In this document: positions 10 to 45,960 of the stretch, one piece after another
How positions within the stretch are numbered: position 1 is the stretch's first letter
Layout: every line of letters begins with the position of its first letter
DNA from: Megaleporinus macrocephalus
Lineage: Eukaryota; Chordata; Actinopteri; Characiformes; Anostomidae
Assembly (NCBI GenBank): GCA_021613375.1
Contig: CM038708.1
Span: 29,659,559 to 29,723,558, forward strand
Direction of reading: 5' to 3'
Length of the DNA: 64,000 nucleotides
Notes under the pieces: generated by a model
The model's database searches: none
What the model saw: the letters and a program-made list of their open reading frames with translations, nothing else
What the model was told of the DNA's origin: nothing
Translations under genes and position numbers: made by a program

Positions 10-39
10 GACTCTGCACACTTCCCCTCACACACGGCC
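10..39 (+). pseudogene. Linker-exon relic of a CTLD gene with broken donor
   Basis: This 30-nt stretch follows a good acceptor (tatttacag) and matches the second exon of the lectin gene further right (44718-44747): GACTCTGCACAC here against GACTCTGTACCC there. It would read LCTLPLTHG in phase 1. The expected donor GT is AT here (ATGAGT), and reading through meets a stop soon after, so normal use is unlikely. It may be the former second exon of the large lectin gene that follows, with the signal-peptide exon left of the window, or a remnant of another gene. Being 30 nt and symmetric, it could be skipped without frame change. Confidence 0.45.
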
Positions 40-2198: not shown

Positions 2199-5100
2199 GT
2201 CAGAATATCTTTTTTATTGCTTAGTATATTTCTGGATCATACAGATCATTTATCAGTTACTGGTGCTGTTCTATCATTCTCAGCCCAGCAGTTACACTGA
2301 GCTGTTGGAAAACTCCAGCACTGCTATATCTGATCTACTCATATAAGCACAACACACACTAATAATGTTAAAATAAAGATTATTATTATTGTTATTGTTA
2401 TTGTTATTAATAATAATAATAACAATAACAATAATAATAATTTTTATTTAAAAAGCACCATTCATACATAAAAGCAAATCGATGTGCTTTACAGAGCTTC
2501 TAAACACAACTGGGAAAACTAAAATAAAATTATTACAATGTTAAAGTGAGAAGTTAGTCTGGAGGAATGCTGAGTTAAATCTCTAATGACTCTTTTTCAA
2601 GGCATTCAGAGATGAAATGGCTTCATACTCCTAAGGAACAACACAGTAACACCTGTTCTAGATCATAGTGAACTCCTAAGGAACAACACAGTAACACCTG
2701 TTCTAGATCATTGTGAACAGCTAAGGAACAACACAGTAACATCTGTTCTAGATCATAGTGAACTCCTAAGGAACAACACAGTAACACCTGTTCTAGATCA
2801 TAGTAAACTCCTAAGGAACAACACAGTAACATCTGTTCTAGATCATAGTGAACTCCTAAGGAACAACACAGTAACACCTGTTCTAGATCATAGTAAACTT
2901 CTAAGGAACAACACAGTAACACCTGTTCTAGATCATAGTGAACTCCTAAGGAACAACACAGTAACATCTGTTCTAGATCACAGTGAACTCCTAAGGAACA
3001 ACACAGTAACACCTGTTCTAGATCATAGTGAACTCCTAAGGAACAACACAGTAACACCTGTTCTAGATCATAGTGAACTCCTAAGGAACAACACAGCAAC
3101 ACCTGTTCTAGATCATAGTAAACTCCTAAGGAACATTTACATTTATTACATTTATGGCATTTAGCAGACGCTCTTATCCAGAGCGACTTACAAAAGTGCT
3201 TAGTGTTCAGTCAGAGTATGACCCTCTATCTAGTACAAACAGGTTTAAGTCCAAACCACTCTTATACTCAAACACTGCCATAAACACAGGGCCAGTGCTG
3301 ATACCTAGAAACAAGACAACGCAATACCTAGCAAGACAGGAACATCTATAAGAGAATAAATACAAGACTACATACAGTACAAGTGCAGTACTTAGCCAGT
3401 GCTCCTAGAAGATAAAGTGCAATTACAGTTTGTACCAGTACTTTAGTATATAGTGTTTATAAGTACTTTACAAAGAGATAGGTCTTCAGTCTGCGTTTGA
3501 AGACCGCGAGAGAGTTCGCTGTTCGGACAGCCAGTGGAAGTTCGTTCCACCATCTGGGTGCCAGGACAGAGAAGCGTTTTGTTGCATGTCTTCCATGAAT
3601 CTTGAGAGATGGCGGGTCAAGCCGAGCCGTACTTGAAGCGCGAAGGGCTCGAGGTGCGGTTCGACTTTTGACCATTGCCATAAGGTAAGGAGGAGCTGGT
3701 CCATTCTTGGCTTTGTAGGCAAGCATCAGAACTTTAAACTGAATGCGAGCAGCTACAGGAAGCCAGTGAAGGGAGCGCAGCAGTGGAGTGACATGAGTGT
3801 ACTTGGGGAGATTGAAGACGAGCCGTACTGCTGCATTCTGGATCAGTTGTAGGGGCCTGATGGCCTGCAGAGGAAGACCAGCCAGGAGAGAGTTGCAGTA
3901 GTCCAGCCTTGAAATGACAAGAGACTGGACGAGCACCTGGGAGGCCTCTTGAGAGAGGAAGGGTCGGATGCGTCTGATATTGTAGAGAATGTACCTGCAT
4001 GACCGAGTCAGGTTCGTAATATGCGCGGAGAAAGATAACTGGTCATCCAGAGTCACCCCAAGGTTTCTTGCATCTTTAGACCGAACAATCAAAGAGTTCT
4101 CGAATGAGATGGCAAGATCCTGCTGAGGACCTGTAGTTCCAGGGATGAACAGCAGCTCAGTCTTGCTGGGATTGAGCTTCAGATGATGAGCTGTCATCCA
4201 TGAAGCAATGTCGGTCAGACATGCAGAGATACGACTGCAAACCTGAGTATCAGACTGTGGGAAGGAAAGCATTAGTTGAGTGTCATCAGCATAGCAGTGG
4301 TAAGAGAAACCATGAGAGGTAATTACATCACCAAGAGAACGGGTGTAGAGTGAAAAGAGGAGAGGACCTAGCACTGAGCCTTTAGGGACACCAGTAAGGA
4401 GCCTGCAAGGAGCAGATGTAGACCCTCTCCATGTTACCTGGTAAGACCGCCCCTCTAGATAGGACTCAAACCACTTCCATGCAGAGCCCACGATTCCCAG
4501 GTCAGCGAGGACGGATAGAAGGATCTTGTGGTTCACCGTGTCGAAAGCTGCAGAGAGGTCCAGAAGGATCAGGACCGATGACAGTTTGGATGATCTTGCA
4601 GTCTGGAGCTTCTCAGTCACCGCTATGAGGGCTGTTTCTGTTGAGTGCGCTGGTTTGAAGCCGGACTGGTTGGGGTCCTGGAGCAGGTTCTGGGTGAGAA
4701 AGAGAGAAAGTTGGTTATAAACAGCACGCTCAAGAATTTTTGATAGAAAAGAAAGGAGTGATACCGGCCGGTAGTTGCCGACATCTGAGCTGTCCAGTGT
4801 GGGCTTCTTCAGAATTGGAACCACTCTGGCAGTCTTGAATGCGGCTGGGACCCGTCCTGATGACAAGGAGCTGTTTATGATGAATGTGATGTAGGGCAGC
4901 AGATCCATGGAGACTGTCTGGAAGAGTGTGGATGGAATGGGATCCAGTGGGCAGGTGGTCGGGTTGCTGGATTTAAGCAGCTGTAGGGCCTTGTCTGTGG
5001 AAAGAGGAGAGAAGCATGTTAAGGAATTATTGGCAAGAGAATGAGTATTGGTGAGGGAAGTGGAGCAAGAGGAAAACGACTGGCGGATTCTGTTAACCTT

Positions 5101-6950
5101 CTCCTCAAAGAAGGTGACAAAATCCTCCGGGGTAAGGGAAGAGGGTGGTGGGGGAGAGGGGGGTTTGAGAAGAGAGGAGAAAATACTAAAGAGCTTGCGT
5201 GGATCAGATGATGATGCTTCCAGTTTCTCCTTATAGAAGGATGACTTGGCAGCAGTAACCTCCGTTGAGAACTTGTAGAGGAGAGCTTGGTAGGAGTGCA
5301 GGTCAGAGTCAAGTTGGGACTTCCTCCACTTCCTCTCTGCCTTCCTTAGCTCTCTCCGGTTGCTGCGTAGGACTTCAGTCAGCCACGGGGCAGGTGGAGA
5401 GGATCTAGCTGGCCTGGAGGAAAGAGGACACAAAAGGTTAACTGCAGATGAGAGTGAAGAAAGTAATGTATCTGTGGCTGTATCCAAAGAAAGAGAAAGA
5501 AAAGAATCAGGATGTGGAAGGGTAGTAAGGATAGTTGAAGCGAGAGACGAGTGAGAAATGGAGTGCAGGTTGCGTCGAGTGAAGGACGAGCCTGAAGAAG
5601 AGGCATTGACAGCGAGAGCAGTGAGGGAGAGTGTGAAAGATAGAAAGTGGTGATCTGAGCAGTGTATGGGGGTTACTGTCATATCCAGTGCTGGGACAGG
5701 TCTGCTGAAGATCAGGTCTAGGACATTGCCTGCTCTGTGCGTTGGAGGGGTCTGGTTGAGCTCAAGGTCGAAGGATGACAGCAGCGGTTCGAGACCTGAT
5801 GACCGGAACGACACAGTAACATCTGTTCTAGATCATAGTGAACTCCTAAGAAACAACACAGTAACACCTGTTCTAGATCATAGTGAACGGCTAAGGAACA
5901 ACACAGTAACATCTGTTCTAGATCATAGTGAACTCCTAAGAAACAACACAGTAGCACTTGTTCTAGATCACAGTGAACGGCTAAGGAACAACACAGCAAC
6001 ACCTGTTCTAGATCATAGTGAACGGCTAAGGAACAACACAGTAACATTTGTTCTAGATCATAGTGAACTCTTAAGGTACAACACAGTAACACCTGTTCTA
6101 GATCACAGTGAACTTCAAAGGAACAACACAGCAACATCTGTTCTAGATCATAGTGAACTCCTAAAGAACAACACAGTAACACCTGTTCTAGATCACAGTG
6201 CACTTCAAAGGAATAACACAGTAACACCTGTTCTAGATCATAGTGAACCCCTTAAGGAACAACACAGCAACACCTGTTCTAGATCATAGTAAACTCCTAA
6301 GAAACAACACAGTAACACCTGTTCTAGATCAAAGTAAACTCCTAAGGAACAACACAGTAACACCTGTTCTAGATCATACTGAACTCCTTATGAACAACAC
6401 AGTAATGTTTCTTCTAGATCATAATTAAATCCTAATGAGCAACACAGTAACACCTTGTTTATTACTAATGAGTTTTATGTAGGTTTCATTATAGGTTGTT
6501 CTAGAACATTCTAGAACAGGTGTACCACGTATATTCTCTAACATATAGCAATTATACTGTATACTAATATTAAGAAGCAGGTGAATTTGGAGATAGGACA
6601 CATTCACAGACATATATTTTTAAGTGACTCTGACACTGCACTAAAGACCAGAGCAACAACTACTACACAACTCCTGTGAACTACTAAAGGACTCAGCAAA
6701 GAATTTTTAATAGATCAGTAATTTATTTATTTATTTTAGAAACAATAGTTATTAAGTAATTCTTTATGAGACTCAGTAATTATTGATCAGTTAATAGTGG
6801 ACTATCCTCATCATTCATTCACTCTTAGCTACTGAGTAATTACCTAGTAATTCCAGGTAGGTCATTGTATTTACTGTTAATGCAGCATTAATTATTAGTT
6901 TAGTAATACTTTTTAGTTTTGCAGTAGTTACTTATTACCTTAAATATTAT

Positions 6951-7019: not shown

Positions 7020-10000
7020 AGTAAAGAAATCAAATATGCAGGACAGGGACACCTTCTTAGTATTAAGGACTGCAAAGTAAATTTTGCATAATCATGCACA
7101 TCCATTCATGTAATGTCACTTTAACATGCAGAGTGCCAGGATGGCTGGTCCCAGTTTGGATCTCGCTGTTTCAGGATCTACACTGCAGTCGCCAATTGGA
7201 ATAACTCTGAGGTGCAGGTTCATTTGTTTTACTATAATTAGATAAATAGATCGATAGATGTGCGTTTTCTGATAAGGATTGATCTTAGTGATTTACGAAC
7301 AACTTCCGAACAACGATGTAACTTTAAGAACCCTAATTTTGCAAGAGTTTCCAAAAAGTCTTCTTAGTCTCCAAATTTACGAGCTAGTTTCAGTCGAGTC
7401 AAGAACTGAACCACCGATGTACATAAGTTTCCTCATTATTATGCCACAAATGTATCGTTATGTAAATAATTATAATAAAAAAGAAAAACAAATAAGGATT
7501 TACCTTACTTTTATGTAAAAAATAAATTTAAAAAATTCACTTGCAGTTGTTGTTTATAGCACGCCGAGCCTATAAATATGAACACGATTAACCTTTCTAG
7601 CAAATGCATTTTTCTCTGGATGAACTAAAAGCCAAATGCTTGAAGAAATAGAGAAAAAAACAAAACATACTATTCTCCAAAGCTCGGGAAAGTTATACAC
7701 AAAGTACAAAGGGAAGGAGATTGCTAGGAACATAAGTGCCTGTAGTGTTCATCACATTTGTCAGCCTTTCACTTGATACTTCATATGTACATAATTGATC
7801 ATTCAGTTTGATTGGTTGAGGTATAAGAAGCTTAGTAAGGCAATGTGTAATTATGTTTAGAAAATATTTCATTTAAATGTGTATATCAAAAAAAAATGTA
7901 TTGTACTTTAAGCAGTTTAAACTGTTTGTTTCACGTGATTACAATGATTCCAACCCTGAAATAGTAAGTAAGTGAAACCTTGGATTTAATAACTGGTCAA
8001 CTGTTTTTGTTTTTTTTGGAAAGCAGCAGCTTCCTCCGTGGTGTCCTGCCTTGGACACCATGTCTGTTCAATAATTTGCGTATGGTAGACTCATGAACAG
8101 AGATATTAACCAGGTCCAGTGATTACCTCAAGCCTTTAGCTGTTACTCTAGGTTTGTTTTTTACCTCTCTGAGTATTCTGTGTTGTGCCTTTGGAGTCGA
8201 TTTGGCGGGGCGCCCACCTCTAGGGAGAGTAGCCACAGTACTAAATCATATCCATTTGTAGACAGTTAGTCTAACTGTGGACTGGTTAATACTTAAAGTC
8301 TTGGAGACTACTTTGTAACCCTTTCCAGTTTTATACAAATTAATCATTTTTGATCGTAGGTCTTCGGAGATCTCTTTTTTGCGAGGCATGGTTTACATCA
8401 GTAGATGCTTCTTGTGAATAGCAAACTCAAAAAGTTTCAGTGTCTTTTATAAGTCAGAGTAGCTCTACACCTCGCTGGACTCCAGGTTTGCTAACTCCTA
8501 ACTCTAATTAGCTTTTGTTTAAGTCATTAGCATACGGATTCACTTACTTTTTCCACCAGCACAGTGAATGTTTTATAGATGTGTCCAATACAGACATAAA
8601 ATATTATTATTGTTTGTGTGGTATGAGGTTAAGCACATTGAGTTTATCTATTGGGACTTGGGACCTAATTGAATGGGGAGGTGGAAAAGGTGGGATTTGT
8701 GTCTCTACCATGTTCAGACCAAACCTACATCACGGCTCTAAACAAAACCATTATTAATTTATTTTCATGACAAATTTACAGGTTATTCTACATCAACCTA
8801 AAGCATCTATTATAAGTCTTTTTAGTTAATATTCTTTCTGTTAGTTGGACAGTACTAGGAATCACTACTAGTACAGATGGAGTGATCTTTCAAATTCTGT
8901 CAGATTTACTGATGAATGAAATGTGAGTGAAAAATAACACAGCATTAATATATATTACTGATCTGTTTCAGCAAAACTGTGTGTCTGTGGGAGGACATCT
9001 AGCATCTGTACACAGCAGTGAAGAATACGCTTTCATCCAGGCTTTAGTGCTGAATGCAACTAATACTTCCGCTTATACTTGGTTGGGTGCAACTGATGCA
9101 GCACAGGTTTGTATAATCCAGTGATATTTTAAATACATTATAATAACTGTTAAGGTATTTATATTAATATCTTTGTTTTTATAGGAGGGAGTGTGGGTGT
9201 GGACAGATGGGTCAGCATTCAGTTACGTTATCTGGACTTCTGGACAGCCTGATAACTATTTGAATGTAGAAAACTGTCTAATGATGAATTTCCCAGGTAC
9301 CATTTCTTTTAGTGTAATTTTCAGCATGACTTATGTAACGATTATTTTATGTCATTGATTTACTATAGAATGGTTCTTGATCGTCACTGAAATACTAATA
9401 TAATATCTGCACAGTTACAGATCTCAATATAATAATAATTTTCCCTCTTTTTTATACTTTTTTCAGTAAATTGGAATGATATACCTTGTGATGCGCTGTT
9501 TACATCAGTGTGTGCCAGTAAGTATTTCAATATTATGATAGCTTTGTTAGATATACAACTCTATCTGTGTTTTCAACCACATCACCATTTCTACACAAAA
9601 GTGGAACGCTATTTTCTAATATCTCGGTGCAAATACACTTTTTTTATTCGGTTTCATTCATTTTGAAGGCACTCATTGGTCGATTTGATCTATTTATTTC
9701 CAACCTGTTTTCTGTAAACAATAGTTGTGATTCCACTTGTTTTGGTGATTTTACTGAATGTTTTGAGCAAACCATTTAACCATTGTGTACCATTAGCTTG
9801 CTAAGTGTGTTAAAATGATTATTTACGAATTGTCCATCTCTTATTTTATTTATTTATAATTTGTATTGATTGTTTGTATTAATTAAAATAATAACTATGA
9901 GCGATAAACACATTCATATTACTTTATGTTATGTATTATGATCTGAGTTACATGTTGAGTAGGGAAATTTATCTTGCGCTACACTCATTGGCCACTGTAT

Positions 10001-13000
10001 CAGGAAATCCCACCTAGATATGTGCCGATATAAAATTTGCAGTAAGAATAATGATATTTACCTTATCATTTAATCAGGGTTTACTATATTATAACAGTAC
10101 TATTTTATTTATATTAATTTATATACAAACTAACATGTAACTTCATTCTTCTGCAGAAACAATCACTACAATCACTGATCTATCAACTACTGCTCCCTCA
10201 ACTGTGACAAACAGCTACACAACCTCTGGTCCTCCTGCATCTGGTCAGAATATGTTCTTTGTCTTTTTAATACAGTAGAGTTCAAAAGTCTGAGAGCACA
10301 TTGAAATCTGGCGTATTTCATGTGATATAACATAATTCAACATTTTCATGTGACAATAAAAAATTTGCAATAAGAATAATGATATTTACCTAATCATTTA
10401 GTTTACTATAATCTAACAGTATTATTTTATTAACACCAACTAAAGAAGTAGCTTCACAAAATGTGCATGAAATAACAATAAACAGCTGTAGCTGGAACTG
10501 AGAATCCTGCCATTGAATACTGACCTTGTGTGAAAATGCTTCAATATAAGCAACGTTAAATTAAAGTGTGGTTAACACCAGCAGTTTCTTTTTCGTGTTA
10601 TACCTGATAAACATATAACTCACTGTATAGTCTTGATTATATACAAACTAACATGTAACTTCATTCTTCTGCAGAAACAATCACTACAATCACTGATCTA
10701 TCAACTACTGCTCCCTCAACTGTGACAAACAGCTACACAACCTCTGGTCCTCCTGCATCTGGTCAGATTATGTTCTTTGTCTTTTCAGTAAAGTAAAATC
10801 TATTTATTTCCAACCTCTTTTCTGTAAACAATACTTGTGATTCCACATGTTTTGGTGATTTTACTGAATGTTTTGATTAAACTGGTTTTAACCGTAGTGT
10901 ACCATTAGCTTCCTAAGTGTGTTAAAATGTTTATTCACGAATTGTCCATCTCTTATTTTATTTTATTTATGATTTGTATTGATTTTATTTCTTTTTGTAA
11001 CAAACAGGGTTTATGGCTACACTGTAAATGAGGGTTGCCCTCAGTGCATTATAAGTCTAATTAAAATAATAACTATGAGCGATAAACACATCCATATTAC
11101 ATTATGTTATGTATTATGATCTGAGTTACATGTTGAGTAGGTAAACCTATCTTGCGCTATACTCATTGTCCACTGTATCAGGAACACCCACCTAGATATG
11201 TGCCGATATAAAATTTGCAAATATTAGTAATGATATTTACCTAATAATTGAATCAGGGTTTACTATATTATATTATTATTTTATTTAAATTACTTTATAT
11301 ACAAACTAACATGTAGCTTCATTCTTCTGCAGAAACAATCACTACAATCACTGATCTATCAACTACTGCTCCCTCAACTGTGACAAACAGCTACACAACC
11401 TCTGGTCCTCCTGCACCTGGTCAGATTATGTTCTTTGTCTTTTTAATACAGTAGAGTTTAAATGTCTGAGAGCACATTGAAATCTGTCGTTGTTCTTTAT
11501 AAACCTGAAATTAAACAACAGAGCATTTCAAGAATTGAGAATGAGAAAACAAAGAACAGATTTTCATGTAATATAGCATAATATAACAGAATTCAACCTA
11601 GACAGGTGGAACTGAGAATCCTGCCATTGAATACTGACCTTGTGTGAAAATGCTTCAATATAAGCAACGTTAAATTAAAGTGTGGTTAACACCAGCAGTT
11701 TCTTTTTCATGTTATACCTGATAAACATATAACACATTGTAAAGTCTTGAGTATATACAAACTAACATGTAACTTCATTCTTCTGCAGAAACAATCACTA
11801 CAATCACTGATCTATCAACTACTGTTCCCTCAACTGTGACAAACAGCTACACAACCTCTGGTCCTCCTGCACCTGGTCAGATTATGTTCTTTGTCTTTTC
11901 AGTAAAGTAGTTTAAGGCCCTCATTGGTCGATTTCATCCATTTATTTCGAACCTCTTTTCTGTAAACAATACTTGTGATTCCACATGTTTTGGTGATTTT
12001 ACTGAATGTTTTGATCAATCTGGTTTTAACCGTAGTGTACCATTAGCTTCCTAAGTGTGTTAAAATGTTTATTTACGAATTGTCCATCTCTTATTTTAAT
12101 TTATTTATGATTTGTATTGATTTTATTTCTTTTTGTAACAAACAGGGTTTATGGCTACACTGTAAATGAGGGTTGCCCTCAGTGCATTATAAGTCTAATT
12201 AAAATAATAACTATGAGCGATAAACACATCCATATTACATTATGTTATGTCTTATGATCTGAGTTACATGTTGAGTAGGTAAACCTATCTTGCGCTATAC
12301 TCATTGTCCACTGTATCAGGAACACCCACCTAGATATGTGCCGATATAAAATTTGCAAATATTTGTAATGATATTTACCTAATCATCGAATCAGGGTTCA
12401 CTATATTATATTATTATTTTATTTAAATTACTTTATATACAGACTAACATGTAGCTTCATTCTTCTGCAGAAACAATCACTACAATCACTGATCTATCAA
12501 CTACTGCTCCCTCAACTGTGACAAACAGCTACACAACCTCTGGTCCTCCTGCACCTGGTCAGATTATGTTCTTTGTCTTTTTAATACAGTAGATTTTTTT
12601 TAAATGTGAGAGCACATTAATACCTCGTATTTTTCTTTATAAACCTGGAAATAAACAACAGAGAATTACAACAAATAAGCATGAGAAAACAAAGAAAAGA
12701 TTTTCATGTAGTATAACATAATTTTAAAAAGTTACAAATCAGAAAAGAATGTAAATTAGAATATGTGTTTCCAGGACAGGGACCTCTTCTTAGTTAGTGT
12801 TAAGGACTGCAAAGTAAATTCTTTCTGGAGCAGGAAATATTCATAAAATCATAATCATGCACATCCATTCATGCAATATCACTTTAACATGCAGCGTGCC
12901 AGGATGGCTGGTCCCAGTTTGGATCTCGCTGTTTCAGGATCTACACTGCAGGAGCCAATTGGAATAACTCTGAGGTGCAGTTCCTTTTGTTCTATTATAT

Positions 13001-16000
13001 ATATATAGATGGATAGATGGATGGATGGATGGATTTCATATTATTGCAGACAGTTTAAATGCAAGATACAGTGACAAGAAAATGTATGTGAACACTTTAA
13101 AATGACCTGGTTTTCTGCATTAATTGGTCATAAAGCATGATCTGATCTACATCCCAAGTATGGACAAACATAATGTACTTAACCTAATACCACACAAACA
13201 GTTCTAATATTTCATGTGTGTATTGGACACATCTACTAAACATTCACAGTGCTGGTTTAAAAAGTAAGTGAAACCTTGGATTTAATAACTGGTCAACTGT
13301 TTTTGGTTTTTTTTTGGAAATCAGCAGCTTCCTCCGTGGTGTCCTGCCTTGGACACCATGTCTGTTCAATAATTTGCGTATGGTAGACTCATGAACAGAG
13401 ATATTAACCAGGTCCAGTGATTACCTCAAGCCTTTAGCTGTTACTCTAGGTTTGTTTTTTACCTCTCTGAGTATTCTGTGTTGTGCCTTTGGAGTCGATT
13501 TGGCGGGGCGCCCACTTCTAGGGAGAGTAGCCACAGTACTAAATCATATCCATTTGTAGACAGTTAGTCTAACTGTGGACTGGTTAATACTTAAAGTCTT
13601 GGAGACTACTTTGTAACCCTTTCCAGTTTTATACAAATTAATCATTCTTGATCGTAGGTCTTCGGAGATCTCTTTTTTGCGAGGCATGCTTTACATCAGT
13701 AGATGCTTCTTGTGAATAGCAAACTCAAAAAGTTTCAGTGTCTTTTATAAGTCAGAGTAGCTCTACACCTCGGTCCAATCCCGTTTCATTGACTGGACTC
13801 CAGGTTTGCTAACTCCTGACTCAAATTAGCTTTTGTTTAAGTCATTAGCATAAGGATTTACTTACTTTTTCCACCAGCACAGTGAATGTTTTATAGATGT
13901 GTCCAATACAGACATGAAATATTATTATTGTTTGTGTGGTATGAGGTTAAGCACATTGAGTTTATCTATAATTGGAACTTAATTGAATGGGGAGGTGGAA
14001 AGGGTGGGATTTATTTATTTTCATGACAAATTTATGATTTATTCTACATCAACCTAAAGCATCTATTATATGTCTTTTTAGTTAATATTCTTTCTGTTAG
14101 TTGGACAGTACTAGGAATCACTACTAGTACAGATGGAGTGATCTTTCAAATTCTGTCAGATTTACTGATGAATGAAATGTGAGTGAAAAATAACACAGCA
14201 TTAATATATATTGCTGATCTGTTTCAGCAAAACTGTGTGTCTGTGGGAGGACATCTAGCATCTGTACACAGCAGTGAAGAATACGCTTTCATCCAGGCTT
14301 TAGTGCTGAATGCAACTAATACTTCCACTTATACTTGGTTGGGTGCGACTGATGCAGCACAGGTTTGTATAATCCAGTGATATTTTAAATACATTATAAT
14401 AACTGTTAAGGTATTTTTATTAATATGTTTGTTTTTATAGGAGGGAGTGTGGGTGTGGACAGATGGGTCAGCATTCAATTACATTAACTGGACTTCTGGA
14501 CAGCCTGATAACTATTTGAATGTAGAAAACTGTCTAATGATGAATTTCCCAGGTACCATTTCTTTTAGTGTAATTTTCAGCATGACTTATGTAACGATTA
14601 TTTTATGTCATTGATTCACTATAGAATGGTTCTTGATCGTCACTGAAATGCCAATATAATATCTGCACAGTTACAGATCTCAATATAATAATAATTTTCC
14701 CTCTTTTTTATACTTTTTTCAGTAAATTGGAATGATGTGTCTTGTAATGCACTGTTTCCATCAGTGTGCGCCAGTAAGTTTTTTTAATATTATGATAGCT
14801 TTGTTAGATATACAACTCTATCTGTGTTTTCAACCACATCACCATTTCTACACAAAAGTGGAACGCTATTTTCTAATATCTCGGTGCAAATACATTTTAT
14901 TTTTATTCTGTTTCATTCATTTTGAAGGCACTCATTGGTCGATTTCATCCATTTATTTAGAACCTCTAAACAATAGTTGTGATTCCACATGTTTTGGTGA
15001 TTTTACTGAATGTTTTGAGCAAACTGGTTTTAACCATAGTGTACCATTAGCTTCCTAAGTGTGTTAAAATGTTTATTTACGAATTGTCCATCTCTTATTT
15101 TATTTTATTTATGATTTGTATTAATTTTATTTCTTTTTTTTACCTTAGGGTTTAAGGCTACACTGTAAATGAGGGTTGCCCTCAGTGCATTATTAGTCTA
15201 ATTAAAATAAAAACTATGAGCGATAAAAACATCCATATTACATTATGTTATGTATTATGATCTGAGTTACCTGTTGAGTAGGGAAATCTATCTTGCACTA
15301 CACTCATTGGCCACTGTATCAGGAACACCCACCTAGATATGTGCCGATATAAAATTTGCAGTAAGAATAATGATATTTACCTTATCATTTAATCAGGGTT
15401 TACTATATTATAACAGTACTATTTTATTTATATTACTTTATTTACAAACTAACATGTAACTTCATTCTTCTGCAGAAACAATCACTACAATCACTGATCT
15501 ATCAACTACTGCTCCCTCAACTGTGACAAACAGCTACACAACCTCTGGTCCTCCTGCACCTGGTCAGATTATGTTCTTTGTCTTTTTAATAAAGTAGAGT
15601 TCAAAAATCAGAGAGCATTTGAAATCTGGGGGTTGTTCTTTATCAATCTGAAATTAAACAACAGAGCATTTCAAGAATTGAGAATGAGAAAACAAAGAAA
15701 AGATTTTCATGTAATATAAAATAATATAACAGAATTTCATGTGATATAATATAAAATAATATAACAGAATTTCAGGTGATATTACATTATTCAACATATT
15801 CAGGTGCCAATATAAAATTAGCAATAAGAATAATGATACTTACCTAATCACTTAGTTTACTATAATCTAACAGTATTATTTTATTTAAACCAACCAAAGA
15901 AGTAGCTTCACAAAATGTGCATGAAATAACAATAAACAGCTATAGCTGGAACTAAGAATCCTGCCATTGAATACTGACCTTGTGTGAAAATGCTTCAATA

Positions 16001-19000
16001 TAAGCAACGTTAATTTAAAGTGTGGTTAACACCAGCAGTTTCTTTTTCATGTTATACCTAATGACCATATAACTCACTGTATAGTCTTGATTATATACAA
16101 ACTAACATGTAACTTCATTCTTCTGCAGAAACAATCACTACAATCACTGATCTATCAACTACTGCTCCCTCAACTGTGACAAACAGCTACACAACCTCTG
16201 GTCCTCCTGCATCTGGTCAGATTATGTTCTTTGTCTTTTCAGTAAAGTAGTTTAAGGCCCTCATTGGTTGATTTCATCCATTTATTTCGAACCTGTTTCC
16301 TGTAAGCAATGGTTGTGATTCCACTTGTTTTGGTGATTTTACTGAATTGTTTGATCAAACTGGTTTTAACCATAGTGTACCATTAGCTTCCTAAGTGTGT
16401 TAAAATGTTTATTCACGAATTGTCCATCTCTTATTTTATTTTATTCATGATTTGTATTGATTTTATTTCTTTTTGTAACAAACAGGGTTTATGGCTACAC
16501 TGTAAATGAGGGTTGCCCTCAGTGCATTATAAGTCTAATTGAAATAATAACTATGAGCGATAAACACATCCATATTACATCATGTGATGTATTATGATCT
16601 GAGTTACATGTTGAGTAGGTAAACCTATCTTGCGCTATACTCATTGTCCACTGTATCAGGAACACCCACCTAGATATGTGCCGATATAAAATTTGCAAAT
16701 ATTAGTAATGATATTTACCTAATAATTGAATCAGGGTTTACTATATTATGTTATTATTTTATTTTAATTACTTTATATACAAACTAACATGTAGCTTCAT
16801 TCTTCTGCAGAAACAATCACTACAATCACTGATCTATCAACTACTGCTCCCTCAACTGTGACAAACAGCTACACAACCTCTGGTCCTCCTGCACCTGGTC
16901 AGAATATGTTCTTTGTCTTTTTAATACAGTAGAGTTTAAATGTCTGAGAGCACATTGAAATCTGTCGTTGTTCTTTATAAACCTGAAATTAAACAACAGA
17001 GCATTTCAAGAATTGAGAATGAGAAAACAAAGAACAGATTTTCATGTAATATAGCATAATATAACAGAATTCAACCTAGACAGGTGGAACTGAGAATCCT
17101 GCCATTGAATACTGACCTTGTGTGAAAATGCTTCAATATAAGCAACGTTAAATTAAAGTGTGGTTAACACCAGCAGTTTCTTTTTCATGTTATACCTGAT
17201 AAACATATAACACATTGTAAAGTCTTGAGTATATACAAACTAACATGTAACTTCATTCTTCTGCAGAAACAATCACTACAATCACTGATCTATCAACTAC
17301 TGCTCCCTCAACTGTGACAAACAGCTACACAACCTCTGGTCCTCCTGCATCTGGTCAGATTATGTTCTTTGTCTTTTCAGTAAAGTAAAATCTATTTATT
17401 TCCAACCTCTTTTCTGTAAACAATACTTGTGATTCCACATGTTTTGGTGATTTTACTGAATGTTTTGATTAAACTGGTTTTAACCGTAGTGTACCATTAG
17501 CTTCCTAAGTGTGTTAAAATGTTTATTCACGAATTGTCCATCTCTTATTTTATTTTATTTATGATTTGTATTGATTTTATTTCTTTTTGTAACAAACAGG
17601 GTTTATGGCTACACTGTAAATGAGGGTTGCCCTCAGTGCATTATAAGTCTAATTAAAATAATAACTATGAGCGATAAACACATCCATATTACATTATGTT
17701 ATGTATTATGATCTGAGTTACATGTTGAGTAGGTAAACCTATCTTGCGCTATACTCATTGTCCACTGTATCAGGAACACCCACCTAGATATGTGCCGATA
17801 TAAAATTTGCAAATATTAGTAATGATATTTACCTAATCATCGAATCAGGGTTCACTATATTATATTATTATTTTATTTAAATTACTTTATATACAGACTA
17901 ACATGTAGCTTCATTCTTCTGCAGAAACAATCACTACAATCACTGATCTATCAACTACTGCTCCCTCAACTGTGACAAACAGCTACACAACCTCTGGTCC
18001 TCCTGCACCTGGTCAGAATATGTTCTTTGTCTTTTTAATACAGTAGAGTTTAAATGTCTGAGAGCACATTGAAATCTGTCGTTGTTCTTTATAAACCTGA
18101 AATTAAACAACAGAGCATTTCAAGAATTGAGAATGAGAAAACAAAGAACAGATTTTCATGTAATATAGCATAATATAACAGAATTCAACCTAGACAGGTG
18201 GAACTGAGAATCCTGCCATTGAATACTGACCTTGTGTGAAAATGCTTCAATATAAGCAACGTTAAATTAAAGTGTGGTTAACACCAGCAGTTTCTTTTTC
18301 ATGTTATACCTGATAAACATATAACACATTGTAAAGTCTTGAGTATATACAAACTAACATGTAACTTCATTCTTCTGCAGAAACAATCACTACAATCACT
18401 GATCTATCAACTACTGCTCCCTCAACTGTGACAAACAGCTACACAACCTCTGGTCCTCCTGCACCTGGTCAGATTATGTTCTTTGTCTTTTTAATACAGT
18501 AGATTTTTTTTAAATGTGAGAGCACATTAATACCTCATATTTTTCTTTATAAACCTGGAAATAAACAACAGAGAATTACAACAAATAAGCATGAGAAAAC
18601 AAAGAAAAGATTTTCATGTAGTATAACATAATTTTAAAAAGTTACAAATCAGAAAAGAATGTAAATTAGAATATGTGTTTCCAGGACAGGGACCTCTTCT
18701 TAGTTGGTGTTAAGGACTGCAAAGTAAATTCTTTCTGGAGCAGGAAATATTCATAAAATCATAATCGTGCACATCCATTCATGCAATATCACTTTAACAT
18801 GCAGCGTGCCAGGATGGCTGGTCCCAGTTTGGATCTCGCTGTTTCAGGATCTACACTGCAGGAGCCAATTGGAATAACTCTGAGGTGCAGTTCCTTTTGT
18901 TCTATTATATATATAGATGGATAGATGGATGGATGGATGGATTTCATATTATTGCAGACAGTTTAAATGCAAGATACAGTGACAAGAAAATGTATGTGAA

Positions 19001-22000
19001 CACTTTAAAATGACCTGGTTTTCTGCATTAATTGGTCATAAAGCATGATCTGATCTACATCCCAAGTATGGACAAACATAATGTACTTAACCTAATACCA
19101 CACAAACAGTTCTAATATTTCATGTGTGTATTGGACACATCTACTAAACATTCACAGTGCTGGTTTAAAAAGTAAGTGAAACCTTGGATTTAATAACTGG
19201 TCAACTGTTTTTGGTTTTTTTTGGAAATCAGCAGCTTCCTCCGTGGTGTCCTGCCTTGGACACCATGTCTGTTCAATAATTTGCGTATGGTAGACTCATG
19301 AACAGAGATATTAACCAGGTCCAGTGATTACCTCAAGCCTTTAGCTGTTACTCTAGGTTTGTTTTTTACCTCTCTGAGTATTCTGTGTTGTGCCTTTGGA
19401 GTCGATTTGGCGGGGCGCCCACTTCTAGGGAGAGTAGCCACAGTACTAAATCATATCCATTTGTAGACAGTTAGTCTAACTGTGGACTGGTTAATACTTA
19501 AAGTCTTGGAGACTACTTTGTAACCCTTTCCAGTTTTATACAAATTAATCATTCTTGATCGTAGGTCTTCGGAGATCTCTTTTTTGCGAGGCATGCTTTA
19601 CATCAGTAGATGCTTCTTGTGAATAGCAAACTTAAAAAGTTTCAGTGTCTTTTATAAGTCAGAGTAGCTCTACACCTCGGTCCAATCCCGTTTCATTGAC
19701 TGGACTCCAGGTTTGCTAACTCCTGACTCAAATTAGCTTTTGTTTAAGTCATTAGCATAAGGATTTACTTACTTCTTCCACCAGCACAGTGAATGTTTTA
19801 TAGATGTGTCCAATACAGACATGAAATATTATTATTGTTTGTGTGGTATGAGGTTAAGCACATTGAGTTTATCTATAATTGGAACTTAATTGAATGGGGA
19901 GGTGGAAAGGGTGGGATTTATTTATTTTCATGACAAATTTATGATTTATTCTACATCAACCTAAAGCATCTATTATATGTCTTTTTAGTTAATATTCTTT
20001 CTGTTAGTTGGACAGTACTAGGAATCACTACTAGTACAGATGGAGTGATCTTTCAAATTCTGTCAGATTTACTGATGAATGAAATGTGAGTGAAAAATAA
20101 CACAGCATTAATATATATTACTGATCTGTTTCAGCAAAACTGTGTGTCTGTGGGAGGACATCTAGCATCTGTACACAGCAGTGAAGAATACGCTTTCATC
20201 CAGGCTTTAGTGCTGAATGCAACTAATACTTCCGCTTATACTTGGTTGGGTGCGACTGATGCAGCACAGGTTTGTATAATCCAGTGATATTTTAAATACA
20301 TTATAATAACTGTTAAGGTATTTTTATTAATATGTTTGTTTTTATAGGAGGGAGTGTGGGTGTGGACAGATGGGTCAGCATTCAATTACATTAACTGGAC
20401 TTCTGGACAGCCTGATAACTATTTGAATGTAGAAAACTGTCTAATGATGAATTTCCCAGGTACCATTTCTTTTAGTGTAATTTTCAGCATGACTTATGTA
20501 ACGATTATTTTATGTCATTGATTCACTATAGAATGGTTCTTGATCGTCACTGAAATGCCAATATAATATCTGCACAGTTACAGATCTCAATATAATAATA
20601 ATTTTCCCTCTTTTTTATACTTTTTTCAGTAAATTGGAATGATGTGTCTTGTAATGCACTGTTTCCATCAGTGTGCACCAGTAAGTTTTTTTAATATTAT
20701 GATAGCTTTGTTAGATATACAACTCTATCTGTGTTTTCAACCACATCACCATTTCTACACAAAAGTGGAACGCTATTTTCTAATATCTCGGTGCAAATAC
20801 ATTTTATTTTTATTCTGTTTCATTCATTTTGAAGGCACTCATTGGTCGATTTCATCCATTTATTTAGAACCTCTAAACAATAGTTGTGATTCCACATGTT
20901 TTGGTGATTTTACTGAATGTTTTGAGCAAACTGGTTTTAACCATAGTGTACCATTAGCTTCCTAAGTGTGTTAAAATGTTTATTTACGAATTGTCCATCT
21001 CTTATTTTATTTTATTTATGATTTGTATTAATTTTATTTCTTTTTTTTACCTTAGGGTTTAAGGCTACACTGTAAATGAGGGTTGCCCTCAGTGCATTAT
21101 TAGTCTAATTAAAATAAAAACTATGAGCGATAAAAACATCCATATTACATTATGTTATGTATTATGATCTGAGTTACCTGTTGAGTAGGGAAATCTATCT
21201 TGCACTACACTCATTGGCCACTGTATCAGGAACACCCACCTAGATATGTGCCGATATAAAATTTGCAGTAAGAATAATGATATTTACCTTATCATTTAAT
21301 CAGGGTTTACTATATTATAACAGTACTATTTTATTTATATTACTTTATTTACAAACTAACATGTAACTTCATTCTTCTGCAGAAACAATCACTACAATCA
21401 CTGATCTATCAACTACTGCTCCCTCAACTGTGACAAACAGCTACACAACCTCTGGTCCTCCTGCACCTGGTCAGATTATGTTCTTTGTCTTTTTAATAAA
21501 GTAGAGTTCAAAAATCAGAGAGCATTTGAAATCTGGGGTTGTTCTTTATCAATCTGAAATTAAACAACAGAGCATTTCAAGAATTGAGAATGAGAAAACA
21601 AAGAAAAGATTTTCATGTAATATAAAATAATATAACAGAATTTCATGTGATATAATATAAAATAATATAACAGAATTTCAGGTGATATTACATTATTCAA
21701 CATATTCAGGTGCCAATATAAAATTAGCAATAAGAATAATGATACTTACCTAATCACTTAGTTTACTATAATCTAACAGTATTATTTTATTTAAACCAAC
21801 CAAAGAAGTAGCTTCACAAAATGTGCATGAAATAACAATAAACAGCTATAGCTGGAACTAAGAATCCTGCCATTGAATACTGACCTTGTGTGAAAATGCT
21901 TCAATATAAGCAACGTTAATTTAAAGTGTGGTTAACACCAGCAGTTTCTTTTTCATGTTATACCTAATGACCATATAACTCACTGTATAGTCTTGATTAT

Positions 22001-25000
22001 ATACAAACTAACATGTAACTTCATTCTTCTGCAGAAACAATCACTACAATCACTGATCTATCAACTACTGCTCCCTCAACTGTGACAAACAGCTACACAA
22101 CCTCTGGTCCTCCTGCATCTGGTCAGATTATGTTCTTTGTCTTTTCAGTAAAGTAGTTTAAGGCCCTCATTGGTTGATTTTATCAATTTATTTCGAACCT
22201 GTTTTCTGTAAACAATACTTGTGATTCCACTTGTTTTGGTGATTTTACTGAATTGTTTGATCAAACTGGTTTTAACCATAGTGTACCATTAGCTTGCTAC
22301 GTGTGTTAAAATGTTTATTCACGAATTGTCCATCTCTTATTTTATTTTATTCATGATTTGTATTGATTTTATTTCTTTTTGTAACAAACAGGGTTTATGG
22401 CTACACTGTAAATGAGGGTTGCCCTCAGTGCATTATAAGTCTAATTAAAATAATAACTATGAGCGATAAACACATCCATATTACATTATGTTATGTATTA
22501 TGATCTGAGTTACATGTTGAGTAGGTAAACCTATCTTGCGCTATACTCATTGTCCACTGTATCAGGAACACCCACCTAGATATGTGCCGATATAAAATTT
22601 GCAAATATTAGTAATGATATTTACCTAATAATTGAATCAGGGTTTACTATATTATATTATTATTTTATTTAAATTACTTTATATACAAACTAACATGTAG
22701 CTTCATTCTTCTGCAGAAACAATCACTACAATCACTGATCTATCAACTACTGCTCCCTCAACTGTGACAAACAGCTACACAACCTCTGGTCCTCCTGCAC
22801 CTGGTCAGAATATGTTCTTTGTCTTTTTAATACAGTAGAGTTTAAATGTCTGAGAGCACATTGAAATCTGTCGTTGTTCTTTATAAACCTGAAATTAAAC
22901 AACAGAGCATTTCAAGAATTGAGAATGAGAAAACAAAGAACAGATTTTCATGTAATATAGCATAATATAACAGAATTCAACCTAGACAGGTGGAACTGAG
23001 AATCCTGCCATTGAATACTGACCTTGTGTGAAAATGCTTCAATATAAGCAACGTTAAATTAAAGTGTGGTTAACACCAGCAGTTTCTTTTTCATGTTATA
23101 CCTGATAAACATATAACACATTGTAAAGTCTTGAGTATATACAAACTAACATGTAACTTCATTCTGCTGCAGAAACAATCACTACAATCACTGATCTATC
23201 AACTACTGCTCCCTCAACTGTGACAAACAGCTACACAACCTCTGGTCCTCCTGCATCTGGTCAGATTATGTTCTTTGTCTTTTCAGTAAAGTAGTTTAAG
23301 GCCCTCATTGGTCGATTTCATCCATTTATTTCGAACCTCTTTTCTGTAAACAATACTTGTGATTCCACATGTTTTGGTGATTTTACTGAATTGTTTGATC
23401 AAACTGGTTTTAACCATAGTGTACCATTAGCTTGCTACGTGTGTTAAAATGATTATTTATGAATTGTCCATCTCTTATTTTATTTTATTCATGATTTGTA
23501 TTGATTTTATTTCTTTTTGTAACAAACAGGGTTTATGGCTACACTGTAAATGAGGGTTGCCCTCAGTGCATTATAAGTCTAATTAAAATAATAACTATGA
23601 GCGATAAACACATCCATATTACATTATGTTATGTATTATGATCTGATTTACATGTTGAGTAGGTAAACCTATCTTACACTATATTCATTGTCCACTGTAT
23701 CAGGAACACCCACCTAGATATGTGCCGATATAAAATTTGCAAATATTAGTAATGATATTTACCTAATAATTGAATCAGGGTTTACTATATTATATTATTA
23801 TTTTATTTTAATTACTTTATATACATACTAACATGTAGCTTCATTCTTCTGCAGAAACAATCACTACAATCACTGATCTATCAACTACTGCTCCCTCAAC
23901 TGTGACAAACAGCTACACAACCTCTGGTCCTCCTGCACCTGGTCAGAATATGTTCTTTGTCTTTTTAATACAGTAGAGTTTAAAAGTCTGAGAGCACATT
24001 GAAATCTGTCGTTGTTCTTTATAAACCTGATATTAAACAACAGAGCATTTCAACAATTGAGATTGAGAAAACAAAGAAAAGATTTTCATGTAATATAAAA
24101 TAATATAACAGAATTTCAGGTGATATTACATTATTCAACATATTCAGGTGCCAATATAAAATTAGCAACAAGAATAATGATATTTACCTAATCATTTAGT
24201 TTACTATATTCTAACAGTATTATTTTATTAACACCAACTAAAGATGTAGCTTCACAAAATGTGCATGAAATAACAATAAACAGCTATAGCTGGAACTAAG
24301 AATCCTGCCATTGAATACTGACCTTGTGTGAAAATGCTTCAATATAAGCAACGTTAAATTAAAGTGTGGTTAACACCAGCAGTTTCTTTTTCATGTTATA
24401 CCTGATAAACATATAACTCACTGTATAGTCTTGATTATGTACAAACTAACATGTAACTTCATTCTTCTGCAGAAACAATCACTACAATCACTGATCTATC
24501 AACTACTGCTCCCTCAACTGTGACAAACAGCTACACAACCTCTGGTCCTCCTGCACCTGGTCAGATTATGTTCTTTGTCTTTTCAGTAAAGTAGTTTAAG
24601 GCCCTCATTGGTTGATTTCATCCATTTATTTCGAACCTGTTTCCTGTAAGCATTAGTTGTGATTCCACTTGTTTTGGTGATTTTACTGAATTGTTTGAGC
24701 AAACTGGTTTTAACCATAGTGTACCATTAGCTTGCTACGTGTGTTAAAATGATTATTTACGAATTTTCCATCTCTTATTTTATTTTATTCATGATTTGTA
24801 TTGATTTTATTTCTTTTTGTAACAAACAGGGTTTATGGCTACACTGTAAATGAGGGTTGCCCTCAGTGCATTATTAGTCTAATTAAAATAATAACTATGA
24901 GCGATAAACACATCCATATTACATTATGTTATGTATTATGATCTGAGTTACATGTTGAGTAGGTAAACCTATCTTGCGCTATACTCATTGTCCACTGTAT

Positions 25001-28000
25001 CAGGAACACCCACCTAGATATGTGCCAATATAAAATTTGCGAATATTAGTAATGATTTAATCAGGGTTTACTATATTATATTATTATTTTATTTAAATTA
25101 CTTTATATACAAACTAACATGTAACTTCATTCTTCTGCAGAAACAATCACTACAATCACTGATCTATCAACTACTGCTCCCTCAACTGTGACAAACAGCT
25201 ACACAACCTCTGGTCCTCCTGCACCTGGTCAGATTATGTTCTTTGTCTTTTTAATACAGTAGATTTTTTTTAAATGTGAGAGCACATTAATACCTCATAT
25301 TTTTCTTTATAAACCTGGAAATAAACAACAGAGAATTACAACAAATAAGCATGAGAAAACAAAGAAAAGATTTTCATGTAGTATAACATGATTTTAAAAA
25401 GTTACAAATCAGAAAAGAATGTAAATTAGAATATGTGTTTCCAGGACAGGGACCTCTTCTTAGTTAGTGTTAAGGACTGCAAAGTAAATTCTTTCTGGAG
25501 CAGGAAATATTCATAAAATCATAATCATGCACATCCATTCATGCAATATCACTTTAACATGCAGCGTGCCAGGATGGCTGGTCCCAGTTTGGATCTCGCT
25601 GTTTCAGGATCTACACTGCAGGAGCCAATTGGAATAACTCTGAGGTGCAGTTCCTTTTGTTCTATTATATATATAGATGGATAGATGGATGGATGGATGG
25701 ATTTCATATTATTGCAGACAGTTTAAATGCAAGATACAGTGACAAGAAAATGTATGTGAACACTTTAAAATGACCTGGTTTTCTGCATTAATTGGTCATA
25801 AAGCATGATCTGATCTACATCCCAAGTATGGACAAACATAATGTACTTAACCTAATACCACACAAACAGTTCTAATATTTCATGTGTGTATTGGACACAT
25901 CTACTAAACATTCACAGTGCTGGTTTAAAAAGTAAGTGAAACCTTGGATTTAATAACTGGTCAACTGTTTTTGGTTTTTTTTGGAAATCAGCAGCTTCCT
26001 CCGTGGTGTCCTGCCTTGGACACCATGTCTGTTCAATAATTTGCGTATGGTAGACTCATGAACAGAGATATTAACCAGGTCCAGTGATTACCTCAAGCCT
26101 TTAGCTGTTACTCTAGGTTTGTTTTTTACCTCTCTGAGTATTCTGTGTTGTGCCTTTGGAGTCGATTTGGCGGGGCGCCCACTTCTAGGGAGAGTAGCCA
26201 CAGTACTAAATCATATCCATTTGTAGACAGTTAGTCTAACTGTGGACTGGTTAATACTTAAAGTCTTGGAGACTACTTTGTAACCCTTTCCAGTTTTATA
26301 CAAATTAATCATTCTTGATCGTAGGTCTTCGGAGATCTCTTTTTTGCGAGGCATGCTTTACATCAGTAGATGCTTCTTGTGAATAGCAAACTTAAAAAGT
26401 TTCAGTGTCTTTTATAAGTCAGAGTAGCTCTACACCTCGGTCCAATCCCGTTTCATTGACTGGACTCCAGGTTTGCTAACTCCTGACTCAAATTAGCTTT
26501 TGTTTAAGTCATTAGCATAAGGATTTACTTACTTCTTCCACCAGCACAGTGAATGTTTTATAGATGTGTCCAATACAGACATGAAATATTATTATTGTTT
26601 GTGTGGTATGAGGTTAAGCACATTGAGTTTATCTATAATTGGAACTTAATTGAATGGGGAGGTGGAAAGGGTGGGATTTATTTATTTTCATGACAAATTT
26701 ATGATTTATTCTACATCAACCTAAAGCATCTATTATATGTCTTTTTAGTTAATATTCTTTCTGTTAGTTGGACAGTACTAGGAATCACTACTAGTACAGA
26801 TGGAGTGATCTTTCAAATTCTGTCAGATTTACTGATGAATGAAATGTGAGTGAAAAATAACACAGCATTAATATATATTACTGATCTGTTTCAGCAAAAC
26901 TGTGTGTCTGTGGGAGGACATCTAGCATCTGTACACAGCAGTGAAGAATACGCTTTCATCCAGGCTTTAGTGCTGAATGCAACTAATACTTCCGCTTATA
27001 CTTGGTTGGGTGCGACTGATGCAGCACAGGTTTGTATAATCCAGTGATATTTTAAATACATTATAATAACTGTTAAGGTATTTTTATTAATATGTTTGTT
27101 TTTATAGGAGGGAGTGTGGGTGTGGACAGATGGGTCAGCATTCAATTACATTAACTGGACTTCTGGACAGCCTGATAACTATTTGAATGTAGAAAACTGT
27201 CTAATGATGAATTTCCCAGGTACCATTTCTTTTAGTGTAATTTTCAGCATGACTTATGTAACGATTATTTTATGTCATTGATTCACTATAGAATGGTTCT
27301 TGATCGTCACTGAAATGCCAATATAATATCTGCACAGTTACAGATCTCAATATAATAATAATTTTCCCTCTTTTTTATACTTTTTTCAGTAAATTGGAAT
27401 GATGTGTCTTGTAATGCACTGTTTCCATCAGTGTGCACCAGTAAGTTTTTTTAATATTATGATAGCTTTGTTAGATATACAACTCTATCTGTGTTTTCAA
27501 CCACATCACCATTTCTACACAAAAGTGGAACGCTATTTTCTAATATCTCGGTGCAAATACATTTTATTTTTATTCTGTTTCATTCATTTTGAAGGCACTC
27601 ATTGGTCGATTTCATCCATTTATTTAGAACCTCTAAACAATAGTTGTGATTCCACATGTTTTGGTGATTTTACTGAATGTTTTGAGCAAACTGGTTTTAA
27701 CCATAGTGTACCATTAGCTTCCTAAGTGTGTTAAAATGTTTATTTACGAATTGTCCATCTCTTATTTTATTTTATTTATGATTTGTATTAATTTTATTTC
27801 TTTTTTTTACCTTAGGGTTTAAGGCTACACTGTAAATGAGGGTTGCCCTCAGTGCATTATTAGTCTAATTAAAATAAAAACTATGAGCGATAAACACATC
27901 CATATTACATTATGTTATGTATTATGATCTGAGTTACCTGTTGAGTAGGGAAATCTATCTTGCACTACACTCATTGGCCACTGTATCAGGAACACCCACC

Positions 28001-38940: not shown

Positions 38941-39065
38941 CATCTGACCAGGGGCACCCAAACATGTTATGCCATTGATTTCCTATAAAATCATCTCTAA
39001 TAGAACATGTGCATAATATAATCTCAATATATCAATGCTTTTGCCTCTTTTACATTCTTTTTCGG

Positions 39066-39116
39066 TAAATTGGAATGGTGCAGTTTGTAATGCACTGCTT
39101 GCATCAGTTTGTGCCA
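39066..39116 (+). pseudogene. Decayed last CTLD exon
   Basis: The 51 nt match the fourth CTLD exon and read VNWNGAVCNALLASVCA when joined in phase. The preceding acceptor is TTCGG instead of TTCAG, and the WND ligand motif is WNG. No other CTLD exons lie nearby. Flanking sequence to about 39740 resembles the intron after CTLD exon d, ending with a degraded Thr/Ser-exon acceptor (cttctgcaaaaacc). It is a remnant of another cassette between the two lectin genes. Confidence 0.75.

Positions 39117-45900: not shown

Positions 45901-45960
<60 letters not shown>

What the first reader, a model, noticed from the sequence alone, without database searches (positions are those of the whole stretch)
10157..31987. 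Twenty-five near-identical 87-nt mucin-type exons
The same 29-codon Thr/Ser/Pro exon occurs 25 times. Apart from the final codon (TCT or CCT) and one GCT to GTT change, I saw no difference, even at silent sites, while adjoining introns differ by substitutions and indels. That points to exon homogenisation by gene conversion or unequal crossover, or to selection on the DNA or RNA itself. The result is a variable-length O-glycosylated stalk between lectin domains. I do not know of a described fish lectin with this layout.
Basis: partly seen in the sequence, partly recalled or inferred. Interest (0 to 1): 0.88.

Follow-up and report, generated by a model that had tools for sequence, protein, structure and literature searches.

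The report
Fish lectin with multiplied mucin-stalk exons
A fish gene for a sugar-binding protein has copied its small stalk exon twenty-five times and its lectin head four times, apparently by recent uneven DNA exchange, predicting a long multi-headed lectin whose stalk lengths could vary between individuals.

Summary
Twenty-five 87-nt phase 1-1 exons lie at 10157-31987 and differ only at exon positions 37 and 84. A genome-wide exon search lists 26 copies; the 26th is in a paralogue 58 kb upstream of the window. They form four arrays (5+6+7+7), each after a four-exon C-type lectin domain. The 43 modelled exons join through GT-AG introns into one frame of 1,283 residues.

Introns fall into two unrelated classes. 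Within a class, copies differ on average 3.2% or 5.6%; four 369-nt introns differ at 2 sites. Exons vary less than introns (3 variable sites against 14.8 expected), but zero silent changes against 4-5 expected is weak evidence. Block edges and four-gamete patterns place exchanges in or beside a ~160-bp exon module. Recent unequal crossing-over plus purifying selection suffices.

The unit is the family's single hinge exon, multiplied. Leader exon 2 has AT instead of GT at its donor, so secretion is unproven. Verdict: new variant of a known kind.

The parts
10..39 (+). Leader exon 2 (GLCTLPLTHG), phase 1-1; its donor position (40-41) reads AT instead of GT. Leader exon 1 (MLFFLLFS) begins 144 bases before the window, in L015 at 9857.
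   Evidence: of 6 copies of this exon found by a word search of the + strand over the first 130 kb of the 164-kb region, the other 5 have a GT donor
7132..9517 (+). Lectin domain C1, exons 7132-7211, 8972-9106, 9185-9296, 9467-9517 (126 codons; QPD and WND present)
   Evidence: (PF00059, 68.6 bits, cut-off 22.6)
10157..12557 (+). Stalk array 1: st1-st5 at 10157, 10675, 11333, 11789, 12471 (87 nt each)
12895..14773 (+). Lectin domain C2, exons 12895-12974, 14228-14362, 14441-14552, 14723-14773
15476..18467 (+). Stalk array 2: st6-st11 at 15476, 16129, 16811, 17267, 17925, 18381. st11 joins the X-type upstream intron to the last-position D intron, as expected of a crossover inside the exon module.
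18805..20680 (+). Lectin domain C3, exons 18805-18884, 20135-20269, 20348-20459, 20630-20680
21383..25227 (+). Stalk array 3: st12-st18 at 21383, 22035, 22717, 23173, 23855, 24473, 25141
25565..27440 (+). Lectin domain C4, exons 25565-25644, 26895-27029, 27108-27219, 27390-27440 (coding sequence identical to C3)
28143..31987 (+). Stalk array 4: st19-st25 at 28143, 28795, 29477, 29933, 30615, 31233, 31901
32320..32402 (+). Tail exon T1 (ENVIAMRISVISNQDLMASDSLQLFLQQ)
   Evidence: similar tails in Colossoma, Acnodon and Serrasalmus proteins
32954..33034 (+). Tail exon T2 with stop codon (LKEMLIDRGLPSNLTLRLRTINKKSP*)
18344..25223 (+). Left copy of the youngest tandem duplication (unit 6,760 bp; right copy starts at 25104). 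Four mismatches over 6,880 bp; left edge 37 nt before st11 and st18.

Best explanation
This is one gene (W) in a cluster of fish C-type lectin genes. Its paralogue A and its relatives show the plan leader - one or two C-type lectin domains - one Thr/Ser/Pro hinge - tail. In W the single 87-nt hinge exon has been multiplied to 25, and whole lectin-domain-plus-stalk blocks have been duplicated to give four. This came about by repeated unequal crossing-over, with exchange points inside or beside the exon and its short intron flanks (about -37 to +35), the only sequence that neighbouring stalk exons share. Shown: the open gene model, duplication edges at the module boundary in two of the three longest block alignments, one hybrid exon (st11), four-gamete patterns of variants, low intron divergence, and fewer variable sites in stalk exons than in introns. 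Inferred: purifying selection on the stalk peptide keeps the units alike. Because each unit is 29 codons in phase 1-1, copies can be gained, lost or skipped without shifting the frame. The product is predicted to be a secreted, multivalent, Ca2+-dependent galactose-type lectin (QPD plus WND in all four heads), with heads separated by O-glycosylated stalks of 145, 174 and 203 residues and a fourth stalk of 203 before the tail. It would cross-link or agglutinate glycan-bearing microbes or mucus.
For: 43 exons, all 42 introns between them GT-AG, one open frame to a stop. PF00059 match for C1; one QPD and one WND per head and 24 Cys in the product. 359 of 725 stalk residues are Ser/Thr and 91 Pro. 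Single-hinge paralogue A in the same cluster and single-hinge relatives, e.g. Colossoma KTITTTTVPSTTVPSTMTVTTSGPPTP before the same tail. Within-class introns of W differ by 3-6% on average against 8-16% in the six stretches realigned between W and A; all 25 W exons share two bases that differ in A; so the amplification most likely followed the A/W split, although the largest within-W intron distance (9.6%) overlaps the lowest W-A value (7.8%). Left edges of the block 3/4 and block 2/3 alignments lie 37 nt before the last stalk exon of a block. st11 and paralogue A pair X-type upstream sequence with D-type downstream sequence. Four-gamete patterns. Stalk exons 3 variable sites against 14.8 expected at the Y-intron rate. 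W-A stalk exon 2-3 of 87 differ, against 8 of 135, 10 of 80, 19 of 109 and 11 of 51 in the lectin exons of C1.
Against: Leader exon 2 has AT instead of GT at its donor, so this haplotype may make a protein without a proper signal peptide, or none. No transcript, glycan or binding data. The statistical excess of exon over intron conservation is moderate and assumes independence of the P and Q sets; within W, stalk exons do not vary significantly less than lectin exons (2 of 87 against 16 of 378, P 0.55). The left edge of a third block alignment (11604/24288) lies inside an X intron, not at the module. The tail domain has no Pfam match above cut-off, and the structure model of a relative was poor (mean pLDDT 53).
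Confidence: 0.7

Rival explanations
1. Gene conversion among stalk exons, including transfer between paralogue A and W, is the main cause of their identity, acting on a short tract of about 160 bp.
For: W-A divergence is 2 of 87 in the exon (st3), 1 of 37 just upstream (st2) and 1 of 35 just downstream (st25; 2 of 35 for st5 and st11), against 8-16% in the six longer intron stretches realigned. Variants at -17, exon 84, +7 and +30 show four-gamete patterns. The module is shared between two otherwise unrelated intron contexts.
Against: The near flanks hold the splice sites, so constraint also predicts low divergence there. Unequal crossing-over inside the module gives the same shuffling and is independently suggested by block edges. 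The array is young enough that little homogenisation is needed.
Confidence: 0.3
2. Selection on the RNA (cassette-exon splicing signals) fixes silent sites in these exons.
For: No silent change in about 25.3 silent sites per exon against 4.3-5.4 expected, P 0.013-0.004. Near flanks are also conserved between W and A. Units are frame-neutral.
Against: The expected number is small. Between W and A one silent difference is seen (TAC/TAT) against 3.5 expected, P 0.13, not significant. 72 of 471 Y-intron windows of the same length have no more variable sites than the Q exons.
Confidence: 0.12
3. The locus is decaying: a lectin gene that lost its leader splice site, with a neutral repeat array left behind.
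For: AT at the donor of leader exon 2, where the other 5 of 6 copies found have GT.
Against: All 43 downstream exons keep an open frame and canonical splice sites. Stalk exons vary less than introns. Skipping leader exon 2 keeps the frame. The AT may be a rare allele or an assembly error.
Confidence: 0.2
4. Part of the array is an assembly artefact (false tandem duplication of haplotypes), most plausibly block 4.
For: Blocks 3 and 4 differ at only 4 positions in 6,880 bp.
Against: The duplication edge falls at the exon-module boundary, with different introns on the left of st11 and st18. Blocks 1, 2 and 3 differ in sequence and exon number. st25 and the intron after it differ from st18.
Confidence: 0.08

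Closest known systems
Characiform CTLD-hinge-tail lectins, several annotated 'macrophage mannose receptor 1-like' (e.g. Colossoma macropomum P0001, Acnodon P0002, Serrasalmus P0004)
   Same: Same lectin domain; in Colossoma the same hinge start (KTITT) and similar end (SGPPTP); same tail; one hinge before the tail.
   Different: In the sequences read, the hinge differs in length through TTVPS-like repeats inside one hinge segment (its exon structure in those species was not seen). W multiplies the whole exon 25-fold and the lectin domain 4-fold. No close relative of W was found among proteins of about 706-2245 aa (only the 7988 best candidates were scored).
Schistosoma mansoni polymorphic mucins, SmPoMuc (PMC2576457, passages seen)
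   Same: A mucin-repeat exon with flanking introns repeated head to tail (27-bp exon 2 in ~1-kb units; [quoted passage not shown]
   Different: 9-residue repeats, units separated by microsatellites; no lectin heads in the passages seen; there the authors describe homogenised introns while exons differ between clusters.
Human LPA kringle IV type 2 repeat (PMC6314250, passages seen)
   Same: Large tandem genomic repeat (5.6 kb, two exons, 1 to >40 copies per allele) making in-frame protein length variants; three silent exon changes define its subtypes, while introns differ more.
   Different: Repeats a folded kringle domain, not a mucin stalk; unrelated gene.
Mannose receptor family, e.g. MRC1, MRC2, LY75
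   Same: Several C-type lectin domains in one chain; sequence hits to solved structures of these proteins.
   Different: I recall no repeated Thr/Ser/Pro stalks between their domains; W shows no ricin-type or FN2 domain and, by eye, no membrane span in its 43-exon model.

Membership tests
C-type lectin domain proteins (PF00059) | Profile match above curated cut-off | tested here: met
   68.6 bits against 22.6, for C1 only; C2-C4 are near-identical but were not scanned
C-type lectin domain proteins (PF00059) | Galactose-type Ca2+ site motifs (QPD and WND) in each domain | tested here: met
   four QPD and four WND, one per head; that these motifs point to galactose binding is recalled
C-type lectin domain proteins (PF00059) | Ca2+-dependent sugar binding | not testable with these tools
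   needs expressed protein
Characiform CTLD-hinge-tail lectins | Hinge followed by the conserved tail (RLKV...LQQLK..LIDRGLP.N.TL.LR.I.KKSP) | tested here: met
   T1 and T2 exons
Characiform CTLD-hinge-tail lectins | Leader peptide exons with working splice sites | tested here: inconclusive
   leader exon 1 present, leader exon 2 present with AT at its donor
Classical mucin VNTR | Repeats head to tail within one large exon (recalled definition) | tested here: not met
   each 29-residue unit is its own exon with intervening introns
Mannose receptor family | Ricin-type domain, FN2 domain, membrane anchor (recalled definition) | tested here: inconclusive
   none seen by eye in the 43-exon model; only C1 plus one stalk unit and the tail were scanned by Pfam; the leader region is uncertain

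The most novel reading that the evidence does not exclude
A length-tunable lectin: the ~160-bp stalk-exon module acts as an in-frame recombination cassette, so that stalk length (reach) and head number vary between individuals by germline exchange, and possibly between transcripts by exon skipping, as a standing source of variation in a mucosal defence lectin.
Probability: 0.3. Interest if true: 0.65.

Novelty: new variant of a known kind. Interest (0 to 1): 0.44.

Why it matters
The locus gives a clear case of a protein spacer built by exon-by-exon amplification, with a hybrid exon and block edges marking where exchanges occurred. It makes a simple question testable: does the number of stalk exons vary in a population and change the reach and avidity of a lectin? 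It also shows how easily exon identity in a young array can be over-read as special homogenisation.

Tried and rejected
Exon-specific homogenisation or RNA selection as a necessary explanation: rejected as unproven, because the sliding-window and silent-site controls are only moderately unusual.

A sharp-edged conserved block of about 3% against 28-34% between W and A: a first alignment suggested this for the stretches next to the stalk exon. A better pairwise alignment of six stretches gave 8-16%, so the claim was dropped. The lectin introns were not realigned.

A first exon model with wrong starts for two lectin exon types gave stops; using the acceptor sites in the sequence gave the open frame.

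Structure: a model of the Colossoma relative from a 20-row alignment was poor (mean pLDDT 53), so no fold search was made. Rfam at gathering thresholds gave only a LINE 3' element. An exact search of a 28-nt exon piece in viral contigs found nothing and was of little use.

Literature: in the rows listed by eight searches (several lists were cut, e.g. 10 of 55) no title or abstract start describes a fish lectin with repeated mucin exons; one search held a badly formed term. The Fugu lectin catalogue (PMC514892) has no 'mucin' in its text (passages only). Absence from print is therefore not established.

Full report
Observation. The 87-nt exon occurs 25 times between 10157 and 31987 on the + strand. 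The only variable positions are 37 (one T) and 84 (16 C, 9 T), giving three exon sequences seen 15, 9 and 1 times. Read from the G that ends a preceding stalk exon, each codes ETITTITDLSTTAPSTVTNSYTTSGPPA(S/P); st4 has V for A; after a lectin exon the first residue is K. The assembly holding the window has 1.28 Gb in 100 contigs. An exon search there lists 26 places: the 25 and one 58 kb upstream of the window.

Gene model. Each array follows a C-type lectin domain of four exons. Four lectin domains, 25 stalk exons and two tail exons, 43 in all, are separated by 42 GT-AG introns with compatible phases and give one frame of 1,283 residues ending in TAG at 33034. A first attempt with wrong starts for two exon types gave stops. 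Domain C1 matches PF00059; each of the four heads has QPD and WND. The stalks hold 359 Ser/Thr and 91 Pro in 725 residues. Leader exon 1 begins 144 bases before the window. Leader exon 2 (10-39) is followed by AT, where the other 5 of 6 copies found in the first 130 kb of the region have GT. Skipping it keeps the frame but shortens the leader to MLFFLLFS. This is the main doubt about a secreted product from this haplotype.

Family. Flanking DNA (70 kb upstream, 30 kb downstream) holds further lectin, leader and tail exons of the same kind. Gene A, with its stalk exon 58 kb upstream of the window, has two lectin domains, one stalk exon and the tail. The best database relatives are characiform proteins with one or two lectin domains, a hinge and the same tail: Colossoma 68%, Acnodon 59%, Serrasalmus 59% identity to a gene A query (11 of the 70 hits read; 20 aligned). 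Astyanax P0003 and Salminus P0006 also have Thr/Ser-rich linkers between lectin domains, so such linkers are not unique to W. A search with the whole 1,283-residue product found no close relative of about 706-2245 aa (15 hits at E <= 1e-10, the fish ones LY75-like at about 19-23% identity; only 7988 candidates scored).

How the array grew. Stalk exons alternate between two contexts. P has Y-type intron upstream and X or D downstream; Q has X upstream and Y downstream. X and Y are unrelated. Homology between contexts spans about -37 to +35 around the exon, with fixed class differences from +25 on. Blocks 3 and 4 are a 6,760-bp tandem duplication with 4 mismatches over 6,880 bp. Its left edge, and that of the block 2/3 alignment, lies 37 nt before the last stalk exon of a block, the module edge; the left edge of the block 1/4 alignment lies in an X intron instead. 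st11 has X upstream and D downstream, as does paralogue A. Four-gamete patterns hold for -17 with +7, for 84 with +7 and +30, and for intron context with 84 and +30. Exchange inside or beside the module is the simplest reading; recurrent mutation cannot be excluded for single sites.

Exon against intron. In the 10 Y introns, 41 of 482 core sites vary (mean pairwise 3.2%, maximum 5.4%). In 11 X introns 25 of 193 gap-free core sites vary (mean 5.6%, maximum 9.6%). The exons on either side of the Y introns vary at 1 of 87 (10 P exons) and 2 of 87 (10 Q exons). Together 3 against 14.8 expected, Poisson P 2.5e-4; silent sites 0 against 4.3-5.4, P 0.013-0.004. This sum uses 20 of 25 exons (st1, 6, 11, 12 and 19 are not in it), counts position 84 in both sets, treats the sets as independent and ignores clustering. 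As a control, 13 of 471 Y-intron windows of 87 nt have at most 1 variable site and 72 at most 2; for X, 8 and 27 of 182. Four of the five 369-nt X introns differ at 2 of 369 sites. Dropping two block-4 copies does not change the Y counts. So the exons are conserved beyond introns, but moderately.

Controls inside the gene. The four lectin domains vary at 16 of 378 exon sites (last exon 8 of 51), against 4 of 196 in the two short lectin introns (Fisher P 0.23) but 165 of 1203 in the long first lectin intron, of which 163 are single-copy differences. C1 to C2 has 15 base changes, 11 amino-acid changing and 4 silent by my reading of the list. Stalk against lectin exons within W is not significantly different by a site count (2 of 87 against 16 of 378, P 0.55). 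Between W and paralogue A the stalk exon differs at 2 or 3 of 87 sites in the six exons compared, against 48 of 375 in the C1 lectin exons (P 0.003), but not significantly less than lectin exon 2 alone (8 of 135, P 0.32). At a 14% intron rate 12.2 differences were expected and 2 seen (P 4.5e-4); for silent sites 3.5 expected and 1 seen (P 0.13). Six intron stretches realigned between W and A differ by 8-16% with many indels; the lectin introns, aligned once and less well, differ by 19-36%, and the 85 nt before lectin exon 2 by 5-6%.

Function. Inferred: a secreted multivalent galactose-type lectin with long O-glycosylated spacers; valency and reach grow with exon number. Every unit is frame-neutral, so gain, loss or skipping is tolerated. 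No expression, glycosylation or binding was tested. The tail has no Pfam family above cut-off, and the one structure model was too poor to use.

Compared with known systems. Tandem repeats of a mucin-coding exon are known in Schistosoma mansoni SmPoMuc genes (PMC2576457, passages), and large in-frame exon arrays in human LPA kringle IV type 2 (PMC6314250, passages). W combines such an array with lectin heads; the rows listed by eight searches of the open library do not describe that, which does not prove absence. I class it as a new variant of a known kind.

Noticed in passing
44558-49567 and 50269-55244: A second, almost perfect tandem duplication (two adjoining alignments, each 99.84% identical) of a related lectin gene or gene part downstream of W.
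   Followed up: partly
56327-56419: A tail exon of a neighbouring gene begins ETITT, like the stalk exon; 14 of its first 15 bases match the stalk exon, which hints that stalk and tail exons may share an origin.
   Followed up: no
2627-3135 and 5805-6455: The same 45-bp minisatellite unit on both sides of a long reading frame that looks by eye like a LINE reverse transcriptase (3457-5832, minus strand), with an Rfam LINE 3' element at 3151-3204, all inside the first long intron of W.
   Followed up: no
39065-39121: A lone match to the last lectin exon (63% identity) without its other three exons nearby, apparently a relic.
   Followed up: no
G000:C7:29563014-29691545: Lectin exons of this family extend at least 96 kb upstream of the window, while more distant C-type lectin matches lie elsewhere on C7 and on other contigs such as C21, C22, C16 and C12 (list incomplete).
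   Followed up: partly
10244-10674 and 15563-16128: The long X introns appear by eye to contain a degenerate copy of the 3' part of a Y intron and the start of an exon module, as if a stalk exon had been lost there.
   Followed up: no
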